64,000 bases of DNA from Listeria monocytogenes (GTDB lineage: Bacteria > Bacillota > Bacilli > Lactobacillales > Listeriaceae): assembly GCF_900187225.1 (NCBI RefSeq), contig NZ_LT906436.1, positions 682,001 through 746,000 of the forward strand, read 5' to 3'. A program made the position numbers and the translations under genes. Of the stretch, positions 9,348 to 46,062 are shown one piece after another. Each line of letters opens with the position of its first letter. The first letter of the stretch is position 1. Below the pieces are notes generated by a model that saw only the letters and a list, made by a program, of their open reading frames with translations, ran no database searches and was not told where the DNA came from.

Positions 9348-10267
9348 TTACATTTGTTTATAATTTTCTTTGAATACACCAAGTTGGTTCAGTGTTACAA
9401 CGAGCTGCTGGCTAAAAAGTGGCAGTGCTTGAATTTGGTCTAAATCACTGGCATAAGCGAAATCAGCTACTTGTAACACAAGTGTATGGAACGAATCTGT
9501 CATGGTTTCGTTTTGTTGTTTTAAATAGGAATTTTCCTGTTCCAATTCTTGGCATTTTGTTTGTAAGTCTTGGTATTTTTGTCGAGTTCTTCTTTTTGAA
9601 CAGCAAGGGACGACAAGGAGTAAATGCTTTTTAGTAAGTCATATACGTTGTTTTCTTCACCTTGGTTTTCGCTTAAAAGTTGAACATTGCTTTTAACGCC
9701 GGAAAGTAAATCAACCAGGTTTTTTTCGCGTGATTTGTCGTAGCTGATTTGTTCTTTGATGGACGCTGGTGCTTTGAATTCAGCTGGCACAACTTTGCCG
9801 AAAATATTGGTTTTTTCTTTTTTTGTATTTTTTTGTGTTTTTCTTTTTCTCCCAGGCTTGTTTTTCGGAATATCTTCTACTTGGATAAGCTCTTTTTTTA
9901 GTTTGTAGTAAGTGTTTTGTAGTTGGCTTGGAGTCTTTGGAAAGATCCGCAAATCGTTTAGGCTGAGCATTTCAGAGATATCAAGGACTTTCATATCTTC
10001 TAAAATAGCAATTTGGTAACATGCGGAAAGTAGTTCTAATTCGATTTTTAACCAACTAATGTTGGAATGCATATATTTTTCGATTCCACCGTGTTCTTCA
10101 ACGGCTTGATAAAATTCAGTGAGTAAATGGTAGATTTCTTCGGCAGTTTGTTCGTCAATGCCAGCTTCTGAAGCCATTTTTTTAATTTCAGTTGTAGATG
10201 AATTCCCCGGATTATCTACTTGTTTTTTGATTTCTTGGAGTAATTTTCTTATTTCTGATTTAGGCAT
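9348..10267 (-). pseudogene. mogR: mogR, motility gene repressor, frameshifted
   Basis: MogR is the Listeria transcriptional repressor of flagellar genes; it binds TTTT-N5-AAAA boxes. The first frame starts at 10267 and gives 230 residues that match the MogR I know, then shifts to 18 foreign residues and stops at 9521. The remaining C-terminal 65 residues, through KENYKQM, are intact in another frame ending at 9348. The whole span is 920 bases, one less than the 921 needed for 306 residues plus stop. The shift falls at an A5 tract (coding strand GACAAAAATAC, about 9576-9586); A6 would restore the frame. The N-terminal DNA-binding half, including the basic KPGRKRKTQKN linker, is kept. The lost tail is helical and coiled-coil-like, likely involved in dimer or GmaR contacts. 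It may be a true mutation, a phase-variable tract or a sequencing error. Confidence 0.88.
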
Positions 10268-11725: not shown

Positions 11726-11998
11726 ATGAATTTAACGCCGATTACGCAAATTTTTCAAGATTTTTTCTATAGTGGGCTGGCGCTAATTTTGCCGGTATCG
11801 CTCATTTGTATCGTGGTAGTAATTGTGGTTGCGATTTTGATGGCGATGATGCAGATTCAAGACCAATCGCTGACGTTTTTGCCGAAGATTATTGCTTTCG
11901 TAGTGGCGCTCTTTATTCTTGGACCGTGGATGTTTGAACACATGACGGATTTGTTTGTAGGAATCTTTTCCAAATTACCCCTGATGATTAGGGTGTAA
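11726..11998 (+). CDS. fliQ: Flagellar export gate protein FliQ
   Basis: A 90-residue protein with two transmembrane hairpin helices and the central MQIQDQSLTFLPKI loop diagnostic of FliQ/SctS. It packs around the FliP-FliR core of the export gate. The ribosome site AGGGAG is good. Two bases separate it from fliR. The antisense sigma-B promoter for the long mogR transcript lies over its 3' end. Confidence 0.96.
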   Translation: MNLTPITQIFQDFFYSGLALILPVSLICIVVVIVVAILMAMMQIQDQSLTFLPKIIAFVVALFILGPWMFEHMTDLFVGIFSKLPLMIRV

Positions 11999-12000
11999 AC
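11974..12000 (-). promoter_or_regulatory. Sigma-B promoter for the long mogR antisense transcript
   Basis: On the minus strand GTTT (complement of 11997-12000) and GGGTAAT (complement of 11974-11980) are 16 bases apart, matching the Listeria sigma-B consensus. A start about 10 bases downstream would be close to 1.7 kb from the mogR ATG. The RNA would be antisense to fliQ, fliP and the FliO-like gene and encode mogR. This agrees with the published L. monocytogenes mogR P1 arrangement, called an excludon. Confidence 0.8.
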
Positions 12001-21341: not shown

Positions 21342-23255
21342 ATGCGGCCGTTAATTTCGATTTGTATGATAGTCAAAAATGAAGCACATATTTTAAGACA
21401 AAGTTTAGCGTCTTTTAGAAAATTTACGGAAGAAATCATTATTGTAGATACAGGTTCCACTGACGAAACCAAGGAAATCGCACAAGAATTCACTGATTTT
21501 GTCTATGACTTTGAATGGACTGGCAACTTTTCTGATGCAAGAAACTTTGCGGCCAAACATGCAACGGGAAAATGGATTTTAGCGATTGATGCAGATGAAT
21601 GTTTGGAAGAGGAAAGTTACCGCAAATTAGAAAAACAGTTGAAATCACCAACGGAACCCATTCAAATGGCGCAAATCATTAGCTTTACAGGGGAAAAAGG
21701 ACGAGTGACAACAACAAACCAAATGGCGCGGGTTTATAAAAATGACGGCACAATTTGCTTCCGCGGCGTGATCCATGAACAACTAGAAGCAATCGACAAA
21801 CGCCCGATTGCAGCTGGTGTTGCTGAAGTAAAAATTTACCATTATGGCTATATGTCGGAAATTGTCGAAAAACAAGATAAATCAGACCGTAATTTACGTT
21901 TATTAGAAAAAGAAGTTAAAAATAATAAAAATAGCGGATTTGTTCATTTTAATATCGGGCAAGAAATGAATCGACTTGGTAATAAAAAAGAAGCGCTGAA
22001 AGAATTTTCTGAAGCATTCCGATTGCGCGATCACAATCACTATATTTGGGCAAAACTAAGTGCTTATCATATTGCGGAGCTACTTGAGCAAGAAAAACGT
22101 TATGACGAAAGTTTGGCAATTATCGAAGAAGCAAGAGTTATTTGGCCAAATGTACCTGAATTCCCGCTAAAAAAAGCCAACATTTTATATGTAAATCACC
22201 AACTTGAAGATGCGAAAGAAATTTACCAAAGTTTGCTAGAAAATGCCGCAATTGACTACCAACCAATCGTGTTGTACGAAGCAACCAATTTTATGCCGCA
22301 CAAAATGCTAGGAACAATTTACTTAGAAGAAAAAGATTATACGCGCGCGATGACTCATTTTTCTAAAGCCTATGCGGAAAACAGTTCCGATTACGGTGTG
22401 ATGTTCCAAATGATTATGCTGCTTAGCAAATTCCATCAACCAAAAGAAATCTTTGCGTTTATGGAACGTCACCATTTCATCTCTAGCACGGAAACAGGCT
22501 TGCGCTTACTTTCGATGACAACTCAACAAGGCTACGCAGAATTATCTGAACTAATTGTTCAGTCACTAACCGATGTGTATCCACCTGTCGCAGAAGCAAC
22601 AGAGGTGAAGATTGCAACGATCCGCAATGTCTTCCCGGTAATTAGCGAGTCGGCTATTTTATTCGGTATTAAGGAAGAACTAATTGATGCTGCGGATTTG
22701 TGTTTGTGGCACTATGAAAATCCGCAATTACCAATCGAAAACGTCATGAAAAATAGCGATGTTGGCGACATTTACGATTTTATCTTTGAAAATGGACCGC
22801 GTATTAGTAAGAAACGTTATTTATTTGTATTAGAACGGGCGATTGCACTTGGAAAAGGCGAGTTTGCTGATTACTTATTGGCACTTCGTAACGTTTACCA
22901 TGACAGCATTAATAGCCACATTGCAGATTTGTTTTTCCAATATGATTTTGCGGATATCGCGCTCGATTTCTACAATATCGTTGATGCAGACGAAGTGACC
23001 AAACAAGGCTATATCAACCTAATTAATTATTTAGTAGATGCTGATGTACTGGATGAGGCGCTTGCGATTGCAGAACGAGGCATCGATAATTTTAGTACTG
23101 ATTTCCGCTTTTACCTTTGGGCAATCAAAATTGATACAGAAAACCGCGCGAACCGAATCAGCGAGGCAATGGATGAATTTCCGAATAACCGTTATTTAGC
23201 AAAACTGTTGGATGAAGTTACCATGCTTCAAGACACTGTTACAAACAATCGATAG
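21342..23255 (+). CDS. gmaR: GmaR, MogR anti-repressor and flagellin O-GlcNAc transferase
   Basis: A 637-residue bifunctional protein. The N-terminal GT2 glycosyltransferase domain (about residues 1-230) has SICMIVKNEAHILRQSL, VDTGSTDET and the metal-binding DAD at residues 83-85. The rest is TPR-like helical repeats. In L. monocytogenes GmaR transfers GlcNAc to FlaA and, at temperatures permissive for motility, binds MogR and removes it from DNA; the complex is heat-labile. The ribosome site AGAGGGAAG is good. In this window its MogR partner is frameshifted. Confidence 0.95.
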   Translation: MRPLISICMIVKNEAHILRQSLASFRKFTEEIIIVDTGSTDETKEIAQEFTDFVYDFEWTGNFSDARNFAAKHATGKWILAIDADECLEEESYRKLEKQLKSPTEPIQMAQIISFTGEKGRVTTTNQMARVYKNDGTICFRGVIHEQLEAIDKRPIAAGVAEVKIYHYGYMSEIVEKQDKSDRNLRLLEKEVKNNKNSGFVHFNIGQEMNRLGNKKEALKEFSEAFRLRDHNHYIWAKLSAYHIAELLEQEKRYDESLAIIEEARVIWPNVPEFPLKKANILYVNHQLEDAKEIYQSLLENAAIDYQPIVLYEATNFMPHKMLGTIYLEEKDYTRAMTHFSKAYAENSSDYGVMFQMIMLLSKFHQPKEIFAFMERHHFISSTETGLRLLSMTTQQGYAELSELIVQSLTDVYPPVAEATEVKIATIRNVFPVISESAILFGIKEELIDAADLCLWHYENPQLPIENVMKNSDVGDIYDFIFENGPRISKKRYLFVLERAIALGKGEFADYLLALRNVYHDSINSHIADLFFQYDFADIALDFYNIVDADEVTKQGYINLINYLVDADVLDEALAIAERGIDNFSTDFRFYLWAIKIDTENRANRISEAMDEFPNNRYLAKLLDEVTMLQDTVTNNR

Positions 23256-24222: not shown

Positions 24223-24358
24223 ATTTTAAAAAATAAATTTATAAAAACATAAAAACGTTGATATAAAGCCGATATTTCGTTTTTTTATAAATAAAAACAA
24301 CTTATTTTTACATTTTTAATAAAAAACATTTGATTTTTTAAAAAAATGAAGATATAAT
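24219..24358 (+). promoter_or_regulatory. flaA promoter with three MogR boxes
   Basis: Exact TTTT-N5-AAAA boxes lie at 24219-24231, 24313-24325 and 24334-24346. A sigma-A-type promoter reads TTGATT at 24330-24335 and TATAAT at 24353-24358 with 17 bases between. The last box lies within the spacer, so bound MogR would block RNA polymerase. No sigma-D (SigD/FliA) type element is needed. Confidence 0.88.
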
Positions 24359-24413
24359 AAAGCATATAGAGAAGAGAAGTCTTTTCTAAACCGAATGTAT
24401 GAGGGAAACACAA

Positions 24414-25277
24414 ATGAAAGTAAATACTAATATCATTAGCTTGAAAACACAAGAATATCTTCGTAAAAATAACGAAGGCATGACTCAAGCGCAAGAACGT
24501 TTAGCATCTGGTAAACGTATTAACAGTTCTCTTGATGACGCTGCTGGTCTTGCAGTTGTTACTCGTATGAATGTTAAATCTACAGGCTTAGATGCAGCAA
24601 GCAAAAACTCATCCATGGGTATTGACTTGTTACAAACAGCGGATTCAGCTCTTAGCTCCATGAGTTCAATCTTGCAACGTATGCGTCAATTAGCAGTACA
24701 ATCTTCTAACGGTTCATTCAGTGATGAAGATCGTAAACAATATACTGCTGAATTCGGTAGCTTGATCAAAGAACTTGATCACGTTGCAGACACTACTAAC
24801 TACAACAACATCAAATTACTAGATCAAACTGCTACAGGTGCTGCTACTCAAGTAAGCATCCAAGCGTCTGATAAAGCTAATGACTTAATCAATATCGATC
24901 TTTTCAACGCTAAAGGTCTTTCTGCTGGAACAATCACTTTAGGTAGTGGTTCTACAGTTGCTGGTTATAGTGCATTATCCGTTGCTGATGCTGATTCTTC
25001 TCAACAAGCAACTGAAGCTATTGATGAATTAATCAATAACATTTCTAACGGTCGTGCGCTTCTAGGTGCTGGTATGAGTCGCCTTAGCTACAATGTATCT
25101 AACGTGAACAATCAATCCATCGCAACTAAAGCATCTGCTTCATCCATTGAAGATGCAGATATGGCTGCTGAAATGTCCGAAATGACTAAATACAAAATTC
25201 TTACACAAACTTCTATCAGCATGCTTTCTCAAGCAAACCAAACACCGCAAATGTTAACTCAATTAATTAACAGCTAA
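24414..25277 (+). CDS. flaA: Flagellin FlaA
   Basis: A 287-residue flagellin, the filament subunit. The N-terminal D0/D1 region (MKVNTNIISLKTQEYLRKNN, LASGKRINSS, DDAAGLAV) and C-terminal NGRALLGAGMSRLSYN to LINS region are conserved; the central variable domain is short (about residues 130-200) and holds the Ser/Thr residues likely glycosylated by GmaR. The start is 24414, with GAGGG eight bases upstream; an in-frame ATG at 24399 adds five residues and is not used. It is a monocistronic gene with its own promoter and terminator. Codon use is strongly biased, as expected for an abundant protein. Confidence 0.98.
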   Translation: MKVNTNIISLKTQEYLRKNNEGMTQAQERLASGKRINSSLDDAAGLAVVTRMNVKSTGLDAASKNSSMGIDLLQTADSALSSMSSILQRMRQLAVQSSNGSFSDEDRKQYTAEFGSLIKELDHVADTTNYNNIKLLDQTATGAATQVSIQASDKANDLINIDLFNAKGLSAGTITLGSGSTVAGYSALSVADADSSQQATEAIDELINNISNGRALLGAGMSRLSYNVSNVNNQSIATKASASSIEDADMAAEMSEMTKYKILTQTSISMLSQANQTPQMLTQLINS

Positions 25278-43300: not shown

Positions 43301-44953
43301 ATGGCAAAAATAAAAACAATGTATTCGAAATTGAAGAATTGGCACAAAGGCGCGATTTTAGTCGGCCTTTTTGTCGTAGTCACGGTGTTATTACTCTACA
43401 TGAACACGCCCAAAACAGAAGTTACACTTTATAAAAATTTATCCGAAACGAGCCAGCAACAAGTCACCGATCAATTAGCCAAAATGGGCGTTGATTATAC
43501 TGTCGACAAAAGCGGCAACATTTTAGTCGATGAAAAAGTGGAGACACTCGTTCGCGACAAATTCGCAGACCTAGGTATCCCATACACAGGCCAAGATGGC
43601 AATGATATTCTACTAAACAGCTCGCTAGGAGCTAGTGAAGAAGATAAAAAAATGCAAGAAAAAGTTGGCACAAAAGTCAATTTAGAAAAAGAAATCGTTC
43701 AAAGTTATGGAACAACTATAGACAGCGCCTCCGTTCAGCTAACATTACCAGAATCGAGTTCGATTTTTGAAGAAGCGAGCCAAAAAGGAACCGCTGCAGT
43801 AACACTCAAAACCAAAAATAATCAAACACTAACAAGTGAACAAGTTCTCGGCATTCAGCGCACCGTCAGCGCAGCCGTACCAAACGTTGCTAGCGATGAC
43901 GTAGCGATTATCGATACGAAAAATGGCGTTATCTCAGAAGCAGACACATCCAAAGAAGAAGGAAGCTCGGCCTATAAAAATGAAGTCGACATCCAAAACG
44001 CCATCGGAAAAAATGTAAAAACAGACATCGAAGGTACACTTTCCAGCATTTTTGCCCTAGATAATTTCCGTGTGAATACAAATGTCGCAGTTAATTTTGA
44101 CGAAATCAAACAAAATACGGAACATTATCCAAACGACGGAAAAGTACGTAGTAACCAAAAAGATACATCAACAGACACATCAAAAGGTTCCGCAAACACA
44201 ACCGAATCTGGAACCGCATCAAATGCTGACGTACCAAATTACACGGAACAAAATGGTGACGATACGAACACCTATACAAGCGAAAAATCAAGTGAAACAA
44301 CGAATTATGAACTAGACTCCACTATCCAAGAAATCAAAAAACACCCAGCCCTTGCAAAAACAAATGTCGTTGTCTGGGTTGATCAAAATGCTTTAAATAA
44401 AAACGGTGTGGACATGGCAGAATTTACAAAAGCAATTGGTGTTTCAGCTGGATTAACGCCCAATATGACTACCGAAGAAGCGGGCGCGGACGGAGAAGCC
44501 GCAGCCGCACCAACATTCGAAGGTACTTTCCAAAATGGCGATGTCACCATCATGCCTATCCAGTTCTTAGATAACGCGACCCCAGCAGAAAAAGACACGA
44601 CAGAAAAAGCTGAACCAGCAAGCAAAGCATGGATTTGGTGGCTTGCAGGCGGTTTACTTTTCGCCGTCATCGCAGCAGGAATTATCACCTATATCATCCT
44701 TCTTAAACGTAAAGAACAACTAGAAGAAGCATTGGAACCAGAAGAAAAAGATTACATTCCAGCCGAAGAAGCAATCATCAATCCAGAAGAACATCCAGAT
44801 TTCAACTTCCAAACAGACGCATTCGATTTATCAGAACCAGAATTAAAAGCTCGCAAAGAAAGCTTGAAAAATAAACTCGGTGAAATGGCCAAAGAAGACC
44901 CAGGGCGCGCCGCAGCAGTCATCCAAAAATGGCTCAATGAAAGGCAGGAATGA
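43301..44953 (+). CDS. fliF: Flagellar MS-ring protein FliF
   Basis: A 550-residue MS-ring subunit. The N-terminal transmembrane helix is at about residues 18-37, followed by the YscJ-type ring-building domain with SASVQLTLPESSSIF; the second transmembrane helix is at about 448-469. The short C-terminal cytoplasmic tail binds FliG. It overlaps fliG by the ATGA pattern, though fliG more likely starts six bases later. Confidence 0.95.
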   Translation: MAKIKTMYSKLKNWHKGAILVGLFVVVTVLLLYMNTPKTEVTLYKNLSETSQQQVTDQLAKMGVDYTVDKSGNILVDEKVETLVRDKFADLGIPYTGQDGNDILLNSSLGASEEDKKMQEKVGTKVNLEKEIVQSYGTTIDSASVQLTLPESSSIFEEASQKGTAAVTLKTKNNQTLTSEQVLGIQRTVSAAVPNVASDDVAIIDTKNGVISEADTSKEEGSSAYKNEVDIQNAIGKNVKTDIEGTLSSIFALDNFRVNTNVAVNFDEIKQNTEHYPNDGKVRSNQKDTSTDTSKGSANTTESGTASNADVPNYTEQNGDDTNTYTSEKSSETTNYELDSTIQEIKKHPALAKTNVVVWVDQNALNKNGVDMAEFTKAIGVSAGLTPNMTTEEAGADGEAAAAPTFEGTFQNGDVTIMPIQFLDNATPAEKDTTEKAEPASKAWIWWLAGGLLFAVIAAGIITYIILLKRKEQLEEALEPEEKDYIPAEEAIINPEEHPDFNFQTDAFDLSEPELKARKESLKNKLGEMAKEDPGRAAAVIQKWLNERQE

Positions 44954-44955
44954 CA

Positions 44956-46062
44956 ATGGCAGAAACACTCAAAGAAACCTTAGAAGAAACAAATGCTGAA
45001 TTAGAAACTGTCGAAGTAGTAGAAACGGAAGAAAAAACTACAACTTCAGCAGATTCAGGTATTTCAAGACGTGAAAAAGCCGCGCTTATTATTTGGAGCC
45101 TTGATGAACAAATCGCGACCGAAGTGGTTGATTTGCTCCCTGATGCATCCAAACAACGCCTTGCACGAGAAATGGCCAAAATGAAAGAAATGGACGGCGG
45201 CGCAGTGGAAGAAGCGACTAGAGAATTTTTAGGAGAACTAGAACTTCTTTCTGGAGGAATTGCTAAACTCGACCGCGAACATTTACAACGCTTGTTCCCA
45301 GACATGACGACGGAAGAACTAAATCAACTCATTTACGGGGTAGAAGCAGAATCACGTATCGGCGAAACCGCGCTAGATATTCTACGCGAAATTGATGATG
45401 TTGACTCCTTGTTTACAATTATTAGCGACGAATCGCCACAAACCATCGCGATGATAGCCTCTTACATGAAACCAGAAGAAGCATCGAAACTACTAGCATT
45501 ACTACCGGAAGAAAAAATGATTAACACCGTCATTGGTATCGCGAGCCTAGAACAATTCGATAGCGAAGTCATGCAAAACGTTTCTAACTTACTAAGAATT
45601 AAGCTCGACACAATGTCGAATAGCTCACTGAACAAAACAGACGGCATTAAAAATGTCGCAAATATCTTAAACAACGTTACCCGCGGTTTAGAACGAACAA
45701 TTTTCGAACATCTCGACGCCGAACAAGCAGAACTTTCCGAACGCATCAAAGAGAAAATGTTTATGTTTGAAGATATTATTCTGCTTGATAACATGACCTT
45801 GCAACAAGTTCTGGCCGAAATTCAAGACAACAATAAAATCGCTCGAGCACTTAAAAATGAAAAAGAAGAACTCAAAGAAAAAATCCTATCTTGCGTATCG
45901 AAAAACCGTCGCGATATGATTACCGAAGAACTAGAAGTCCTTGGCCCAATCAGACTTTCCGATGTTGAGCAAGCCCAACAAGATATCGCCAATGTCGTTA
46001 AAAATCTAGAAAAAGACGGCAAAATAGTTATCCAACGGGGGGAACAGGATGTCCTTATCTAA
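44956..46062 (+). CDS. fliG: Flagellar motor switch protein FliG
   Basis: A 368-residue rotor protein. N-terminal acidic extension, then FliG-N, FliG-M (with the EHPQT-like DESPQTIAMIASYMKPEEAS) and FliG-C with charged torque helix residues near the C-terminus. It contacts FliF, FliM and the stator MotA. The start at 44956 has AGGA six bases upstream; ATG at 44950 lies too close to it. It overlaps fliH. Confidence 0.95.
   Translation: MAETLKETLEETNAELETVEVVETEEKTTTSADSGISRREKAALIIWSLDEQIATEVVDLLPDASKQRLAREMAKMKEMDGGAVEEATREFLGELELLSGGIAKLDREHLQRLFPDMTTEELNQLIYGVEAESRIGETALDILREIDDVDSLFTIISDESPQTIAMIASYMKPEEASKLLALLPEEKMINTVIGIASLEQFDSEVMQNVSNLLRIKLDTMSNSSLNKTDGIKNVANILNNVTRGLERTIFEHLDAEQAELSERIKEKMFMFEDIILLDNMTLQQVLAEIQDNNKIARALKNEKEELKEKILSCVSKNRRDMITEELEVLGPIRLSDVEQAQQDIANVVKNLEKDGKIVIQRGEQDVLI

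What the first reader, a model, noticed from the sequence alone, without database searches (positions are those of the whole stretch)
9348..10267. mogR is frameshifted by one base in an A tract
The reading frame from 10267 matches MogR for 230 residues (to EELDK) and then breaks. The native C-terminal sequence (from MEQENSYLKQ to KENYKQM) is intact in the next frame and ends at 9348. The span is 920 bases, exactly one short of 306 codons plus stop. The break sits at A5 (coding strand GACAAAAATAC); A6 restores the frame. The product would keep the DNA-binding half but lose 76 residues of its helical tail. If real, flagellar gene repression above 30 C, and response to GmaR, may be altered. The homopolymer could also permit slippage.
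Basis: partly seen in the sequence, partly recalled or inferred. Interest (0 to 1): 0.88.

Follow-up and report, generated by a model that had tools for sequence, protein, structure and literature searches.

The report
Frameshifted flagellar repressor gene mogR
In this Listeria monocytogenes genome the gene for the flagellar repressor MogR is broken by one missing base, and the same genome also carries a damaged flagellin ribosome-binding site and a stop codon in sigB, so it looks like a strain that has lost control of its flagella; a sequencing error at the mogR site itself cannot yet be excluded.

Summary
mogR (window 9348-10267, minus strand) is 920 bases; 16 of 16 near comparators have one more base in the same A/T run. 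The product is native MogR 1-230 plus 18 foreign residues: DNA- and GmaR-binding parts kept, most of the leucine-zipper/oligomerisation part lost. The genome is nearly identical to NCTC 7974: 8 mismatches and 7 one-base indels in 393,938 bases. Five changes are private: three one-base frameshifts (mogR, a mannose-type PTS IIA gene, a MucBP surface protein), a sigB nonsense codon, and a substitution that damages the flaA Shine-Dalgarno site and creates an upstream in-frame ATG. Three of five lie in one published circuit (SigB, MogR, FlaA). I favour a real loss-of-function allele in a laboratory-adapted or relaxed strain (0.58), with flagellin perhaps secondarily throttled. A consensus error at the mogR run is the main rival (0.35): indels outnumber substitutions among the private changes. 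Slippage or phase variation is unlikely. It is a new member of a known kind; the linked flaA and sigB lesions are the interesting part.

The parts
9521..10267 (-). broken mogR frame as it would be read: 248 residues, native 1-230 plus 18 foreign
9576..9580 (-). A run (coding strand) where the frame breaks; one base shorter than in 16 of 16 near comparators
9348..9545 (-). detached native C-terminal frame of MogR (part of the leucine-zipper/oligomerisation region)
   Evidence: no solved structure matched at E 0.1
24400..24400 (+). private substitution in the flaA Shine-Dalgarno site
24399..24401 (+). upstream ATG created by that substitution, in frame with flaA (five extra codons)
24414..25277 (+). 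flaA, flagellin, coding sequence without a difference from NCTC 7974
24313..24346 (+). MogR-operator-like TTTTNNNNNAAAA sites in front of flaA (24313-24326, 24334-24346); the motif is recalled
   Evidence: 49 matches in the window against 18 expected, 0 of 100 shuffles reach 49; single sites are unproven
21342..23255 (+). gmaR (name from its 637-residue length and position), no difference from NCTC 7974
11975..12000 (-). SigB-type promoter-like match (motif recalled) pointing toward mogR, about 1.7 kb upstream of its start; a candidate for the SigB-dependent antisense promoter
   Evidence: not above chance (3 found, 4.1 expected)

Best explanation
mogR carries a genuine one-base deletion in an A/T run. 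The cell makes at most a 248-residue MogR that keeps the whole DNA-binding and GmaR-binding domain but lacks 33 of the 46 residues of the predicted leucine zipper and the rest of the C-terminal domain. Repression of flagellar genes is most likely weakened rather than simply absent, most visibly at 37 C. The sigB nonsense codon (region 4 lost) removes the other repressor input, the SigB-dependent antisense RNA. The flaA Shine-Dalgarno substitution should lower flagellin translation, most simply as a suppressor of derepressed flagellin. Shown: the DNA differences, their private status against three comparators, the predicted protein ends, the calculated loss of ribosome pairing. Inferred: that the mogR base is truly missing in the cell, the partial loss of repression, the order of events, and selection in laboratory culture. 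The confidence given is for the allele being real; the full chain with the suppressor is the novel case below.
For: Break and intact comparators. Near-identical comparison: 8 mismatches and 7 indels in 393,938 bases. NCTC 7974 has 1,266 A/T runs of six or more in that region and this genome departs privately from two, mogR and one A8 run. Both private substitutions are disruptive (sigB nonsense, flaA ribosome site); 4.7% of possible substitutions would be nonsense or in a six-base ribosome site, so two of two has a chance of about 0.002. AGGAGG is kept in 15 of 15 flaA leaders read, 3 more not read; calculated pairing with the 16S tail falls from -11.8 to -6.7 kcal/mol (tail found at six places in this genome). 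DBD 1-162 holds both GmaR sites, and oligomerisation is suggested to be needed for complete repression (PMC9638930 passages); leucine zipper 218-263 (PMC3150276 passages). SigB drives the antisense RNA (PMC13101537); SigB-attenuating mutations arise readily in laboratory strains and wild isolates (PMC13068326 passage). The lost region is 97-100% identical to the NCTC 7974 copy in 10 of 15 other intact copies, 91-93% in three.
Against: Three of five private changes are one-base deletions, a higher share than ordinary mutation usually gives (general knowledge), and NCTC 7974 has four one-base indels of its own in the same stretch, as residual consensus errors would give. No reads, expression data or phenotype are at hand. 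Two of five changes in the flagellar cluster (about 12% of the region by my boundaries) is not striking by position alone. MogR 1-162 alone binds operator DNA in vitro, so the truncated protein may repress well. In the two distant copies the lost region is less conserved (62-63%) than the rest (about 72%).
Confidence: 0.58

Rival explanations
1. The mogR break is a residual consensus error of the assembly; the strain has an intact mogR. The flaA and sigB substitutions may still be real.
For: A one-base deletion in a run is the commonest consensus error of several platforms (general knowledge). Among private changes indels (3) outnumber substitutions (2). The NCTC 7974 record has four one-base indels of its own in the same 394 kb; all four lie in frames that this genome reads differently.
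Against: Two private run-length changes against 1,266 A/T runs of six or more. In a further 800 kb, 623 frames of FDAARGOS_57 gave 13 flagged frames, of which one is a clear frame break, one is unresolved and 11 broke only within the first 25 residues, one of those inspected; three private breaks per 394 kb would predict about six (my arithmetic; private status cannot be told there). Private substitutions, not typical errors, hit the same circuit.
Confidence: 0.35
2. Sub-case of a real allele: the truncation is nearly neutral. Residues 1-230 repress well enough and GmaR still controls them, so thermoregulation persists.
For: MogR 1-162 binds operator DNA and GmaR in published assays; the retained piece is longer.
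Against: The paper's discussion suggests oligomerisation is needed for complete repression. The lost region is conserved among near copies.
Confidence: 0.2
3. The run is a phase-variable or slippage site, so that full-length MogR is made by a fraction of ribosomes, polymerases or cells.
For: It is a homopolymer inside a regulator whose loss could be useful outside the host (inference).
Against: Run of five here and six in NCTC 7974; 1,266 A/T runs of six or more exist in 394 kb. 0 of 16 near comparators show the short state. GAC AAA AAT does not form an X XXY YYZ heptamer (read by eye).
Confidence: 0.03

Closest known systems
MogR of Listeria monocytogenes (PF12181; PDB 3FDQ, 7X9S)
   Same: residues 1-162 match the two solved MogR chains; DNA-binding and GmaR-binding parts complete
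   Different: one-base deletion ends the native frame at 230; most of the leucine zipper and the C-terminal tail are lost
Spontaneous SigB-pathway mutants of L. monocytogenes (EGD-e isolates with an rsbU frameshift, PMC7167478; clinical isolate MQ140025, PMC13068326)
   Same: loss of function in the SigB pathway; a motility change is tied to it in MQ140025
   Different: here sigB itself has a nonsense codon, together with mogR and flaA leader lesions
Engineered mogR deletion in EGD-e
   Same: loss of MogR restores FlaA in an rsbX-deletion background, though not motility (PMC13101537)
   Different: here a C-terminal truncation that keeps the DNA-binding domain, in a genome whose flaA leader is also altered

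Membership tests
MogR repressor family | PF12181 DNA-binding domain | tested here: met
   259 bits, residues 9-151, cut-off 25
MogR repressor family | C-terminal leucine zipper/oligomerisation domain in the same frame | tested here: not met
   the native frame ends at residue 230; the predicted zipper is 218-263
MogR repressor family | position next to the flagellar cluster, divergent from it | tested here: met
   same neighbours as in NCTC 7974 and L. innocua
Homopolymer phase-variable (contingency) gene | both run lengths found among relatives | tested here: not met
   short state in 0 of 16 near comparators; only NCTC 7974 is near-identical, so variation inside the clone was hardly sampled
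Homopolymer phase-variable (contingency) gene | unusually long repeat run | tested here: not met
   1,266 A/T runs of six or more in 394 kb
Programmed -1 ribosomal frameshift | X XXY YYZ slippery heptamer at the break | tested here: not met
   read by eye
Laboratory-adapted loss-of-function strain | excess of disruptive over silent private changes | tested here: inconclusive
   five of five private changes disruptive, two of two substitutions; small numbers, and the indels could be errors
Laboratory-adapted loss-of-function strain | phenotype and passage history | not testable with these tools
   strain unnamed

The most novel reading that the evidence does not exclude
The strain has lost temperature control of motility in a stepwise way: MogR reduced to a DNA-binding, GmaR-responsive but non-oligomerising form, the SigB antisense input removed by a nonsense codon, and flagellin output brought down again by a leader mutation that both breaks the Shine-Dalgarno site and plants an upstream in-frame start. 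That would be a natural suppressor of flagellin overproduction and a ready test of whether MogR oligomerisation is needed for full repression.
Probability: 0.25. Interest if true: 0.55.

Novelty: new member of a known kind. Interest (0 to 1): 0.36.

Why it matters
If real, the allele separates MogR's DNA-binding and GmaR-binding part from its oligomerisation part in a natural strain, and the linked flaA and sigB lesions would make this genome a poor reference for flagellar thermoregulation and stress physiology. If it is an error, it warns against reading mogR status from this assembly. Either way the comparison with a near-identical strain shows how to weigh a lone homopolymer frameshift.

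Tried and rejected
Programmed frameshift and phase variation: rejected on run length, comparators and lack of a slippery heptamer. A second broken mogR in genome G016 (three pieces): rejected; the stretch holds masked 100-base N runs. SigB promoter match near mogR: kept only as a candidate, three matches being no more than chance. Naming the strain: the one collection scan returned Listeria farberi, L. cossartiae and two unrelated records; the tool says the window's own genome may be left out. The best named neighbour is NCTC 7974, listed as serovar 1/2a (PMC11925748, figure legend and table passage). Published mogR frameshifts: of ten paper searches, looked for mogR lesions or phenotypes (20 of 36 papers listed). 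The listings, and the passages opened in ten papers, showed no natural mogR frameshift in L. monocytogenes; most listed papers were not opened, most subscription papers are not held, and the 2006 MogR paper is not held. One paper (PMC7793685) marks nonsense or frameshift mutations in a B. anthracis motility locus; which genes was not seen. Census caveats: the filter dropped breaks in the first 35 residues (14 of 22 frames); of these I inspected two, and one, near G000:1225312 in a 458-residue frame, is a true one-base break. Of the eight kept, mogR, the IIA gene, the surface gene, sigB and 659476 are clear; at 830864 the gap seems to lie upstream of a native start (my reading); 863216 and 1328694 were not resolved.

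Full report
What is there. On the minus strand of the window a frame starts at 10267 and ends at 9521 after 248 codons. Its first 230 residues are MogR; the next 18 come from another frame. The missing C-terminal part lies intact in the next frame and ends at 9348. The whole span is 920 bases. The break sits in an A run at 9580-9576 on the coding strand. Pfam's MogR DNA-binding family matches residues 9-151 at 259 bits; NCBIfam gave nothing at E 0.001. The two solved MogR chains cover residues 1-162.

Comparators. I aligned the gene with 20 others: three named records and copies from 17 other Listeria genomes, out of 24 others searched. Sixteen are near enough to read the run and all 16 have one base more there. 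Fifteen of these are unmasked and open for 306 residues; one (G016) is partly masked with N. Of four distant ones two are open 304-residue frames and two were only partly aligned. The lost region is 97-100% identical to the NCTC 7974 copy in 10 of 15 other intact copies and 91-93% in three, about as conserved as the rest; in the two distant ones it is lower, 62-63% against about 72% elsewhere.

A near-identical strain. The window belongs to a 2,864,663-base, one-contig genome. A 393,943-base record of strain NCTC 7974, deposited as a plasmid but collinear with this chromosome, matches it over 393,938 bases with 8 mismatches and 7 one-base indels. FDAARGOS_57 and genome G017 (about 5.5% mismatch) serve to polarise these 15 differences (for 676414). 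Ten are changes in NCTC 7974 (six substitutions, four indels). Five are private to this genome: the mogR deletion; a substitution at window 24400; one-base deletions at 789111 and 846471; and a substitution at 911459 (genome coordinates).

What the private changes do. The substitution at 24400 lies 14 bases before the flaA start codon, within its Shine-Dalgarno site, and also creates an ATG in frame with flaA, five codons upstream. AGGAGG is kept in 15 of 15 leaders that I could read (13 genus genomes, NCTC 7974, FDAARGOS_57); in three distant ones my pattern did not match, so they are unread. Calculated pairing with the 16S tail drops from -11.8 to -6.7 kcal/mol; that tail occurs at six places in this genome. 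The change at 911459 is a nonsense codon in sigB: the remaining frame matches SigB (307.6 bits, just under the family cut-off of 315) with sigma regions 2 and 3 but no region 4. The deletion at 789111 breaks a mannose-family PTS IIA gene, and that at 846471 a MucBP-domain surface protein. So five of five private changes are disruptive. Of all possible substitutions in the region 4.2% would be nonsense and 0.6% would fall in a six-base ribosome site, so two of two disruptive substitutions has a chance near 0.002. Three frameshifts out of three indels is no surprise in DNA that is 89% in frames (0.70).

Real or error. Against a general homopolymer problem: NCTC 7974 has 1,266 A/T runs of six or more in this region, and this genome departs privately from two. 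A frame census against FDAARGOS_57 over 1.2 Mb took 939 frames of 150 residues or more: 887 intact, 28 absent, 22 flagged, 2 other; 316 frames and 9 flags fall in the first 400 kb, 623 and 13 in the other 800 kb. Fourteen flagged ones broke only near the start, as mechanical upstream extensions do, and eight were kept. Of the fourteen I inspected two: one is an extension, one a true one-base break near G000:1225312. The reverse census took 952 frames, flagged 14 and kept 2. In favour of error: three of the five private changes are one-base deletions, and NCTC 7974 carries four one-base indels of its own in the same stretch. Without reads the mogR base stays open; the two substitutions are less open to this doubt.

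How it would work. [quoted passage not shown] A leucine zipper is predicted at 218-263, and MogR 1-162 still binds GmaR (PMC3150276, passages). The broken protein should therefore bind DNA and GmaR but oligomerise poorly, giving incomplete repression; the 2022 paper suggests that oligomerisation is required for complete repression. [quoted passage not shown] The flaA leader change acts the other way and should lower flagellin. The simplest story is derepression followed by a translational suppressor; the order is inference. SigB-attenuating mutations are reported to arise readily, and loss-of-function ones to give a fitness advantage under mild stress (PMC13068326, passages).

The response to GmaR should be kept, not lost. 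Slippage is not supported. The wider setting (flaA leader, sigB) matters more than the homopolymer.

Noticed in passing
window 24399-24414: flaA Shine-Dalgarno site carries a private substitution that also creates an upstream in-frame ATG.
   Followed up: yes
G000:C1:910874-911671 (L047), outside the window: sigB has a private nonsense codon that removes sigma region 4.
   Followed up: yes
G000:C1:788822-789285 (L041): Mannose-family PTS IIA gene broken by a private one-base deletion.
   Followed up: partly
G000:C1:845741-846750 (L044): MucBP-domain surface protein broken by a private one-base deletion in an A8 run; the C-terminal part is in another frame.
   Followed up: partly
G000:C1 near 1225312 (L140): One-base frame break near the start of a 458-residue frame compared with FDAARGOS_57; not known whether it is private or shared by the clone.
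   Followed up: partly
G000:C1 near 659476 (L035): In-frame stop in a 304-residue frame that is open in FDAARGOS_57; NCTC 7974 shows no difference here, so it is shared by the clone.
   Followed up: no
L002 / NZ_LR134399.1, L003 / NZ_CP030101.1, L004 / NZ_CP095725.1: Records deposited as Listeria plasmids look chromosomal: a 394-kb chromosome piece, a 2.9-Mb record, and a 476-kb record with the mogR-flagellar region.
   Followed up: partly
NZ_LR134399.1 near 281217, 332845, 138252, 109070: NCTC 7974 has four one-base indels of its own in 394 kb, one of which fuses the flagellar frame homologous to window 44950-46062 to the next frame; possible consensus errors of that record.
   Followed up: partly
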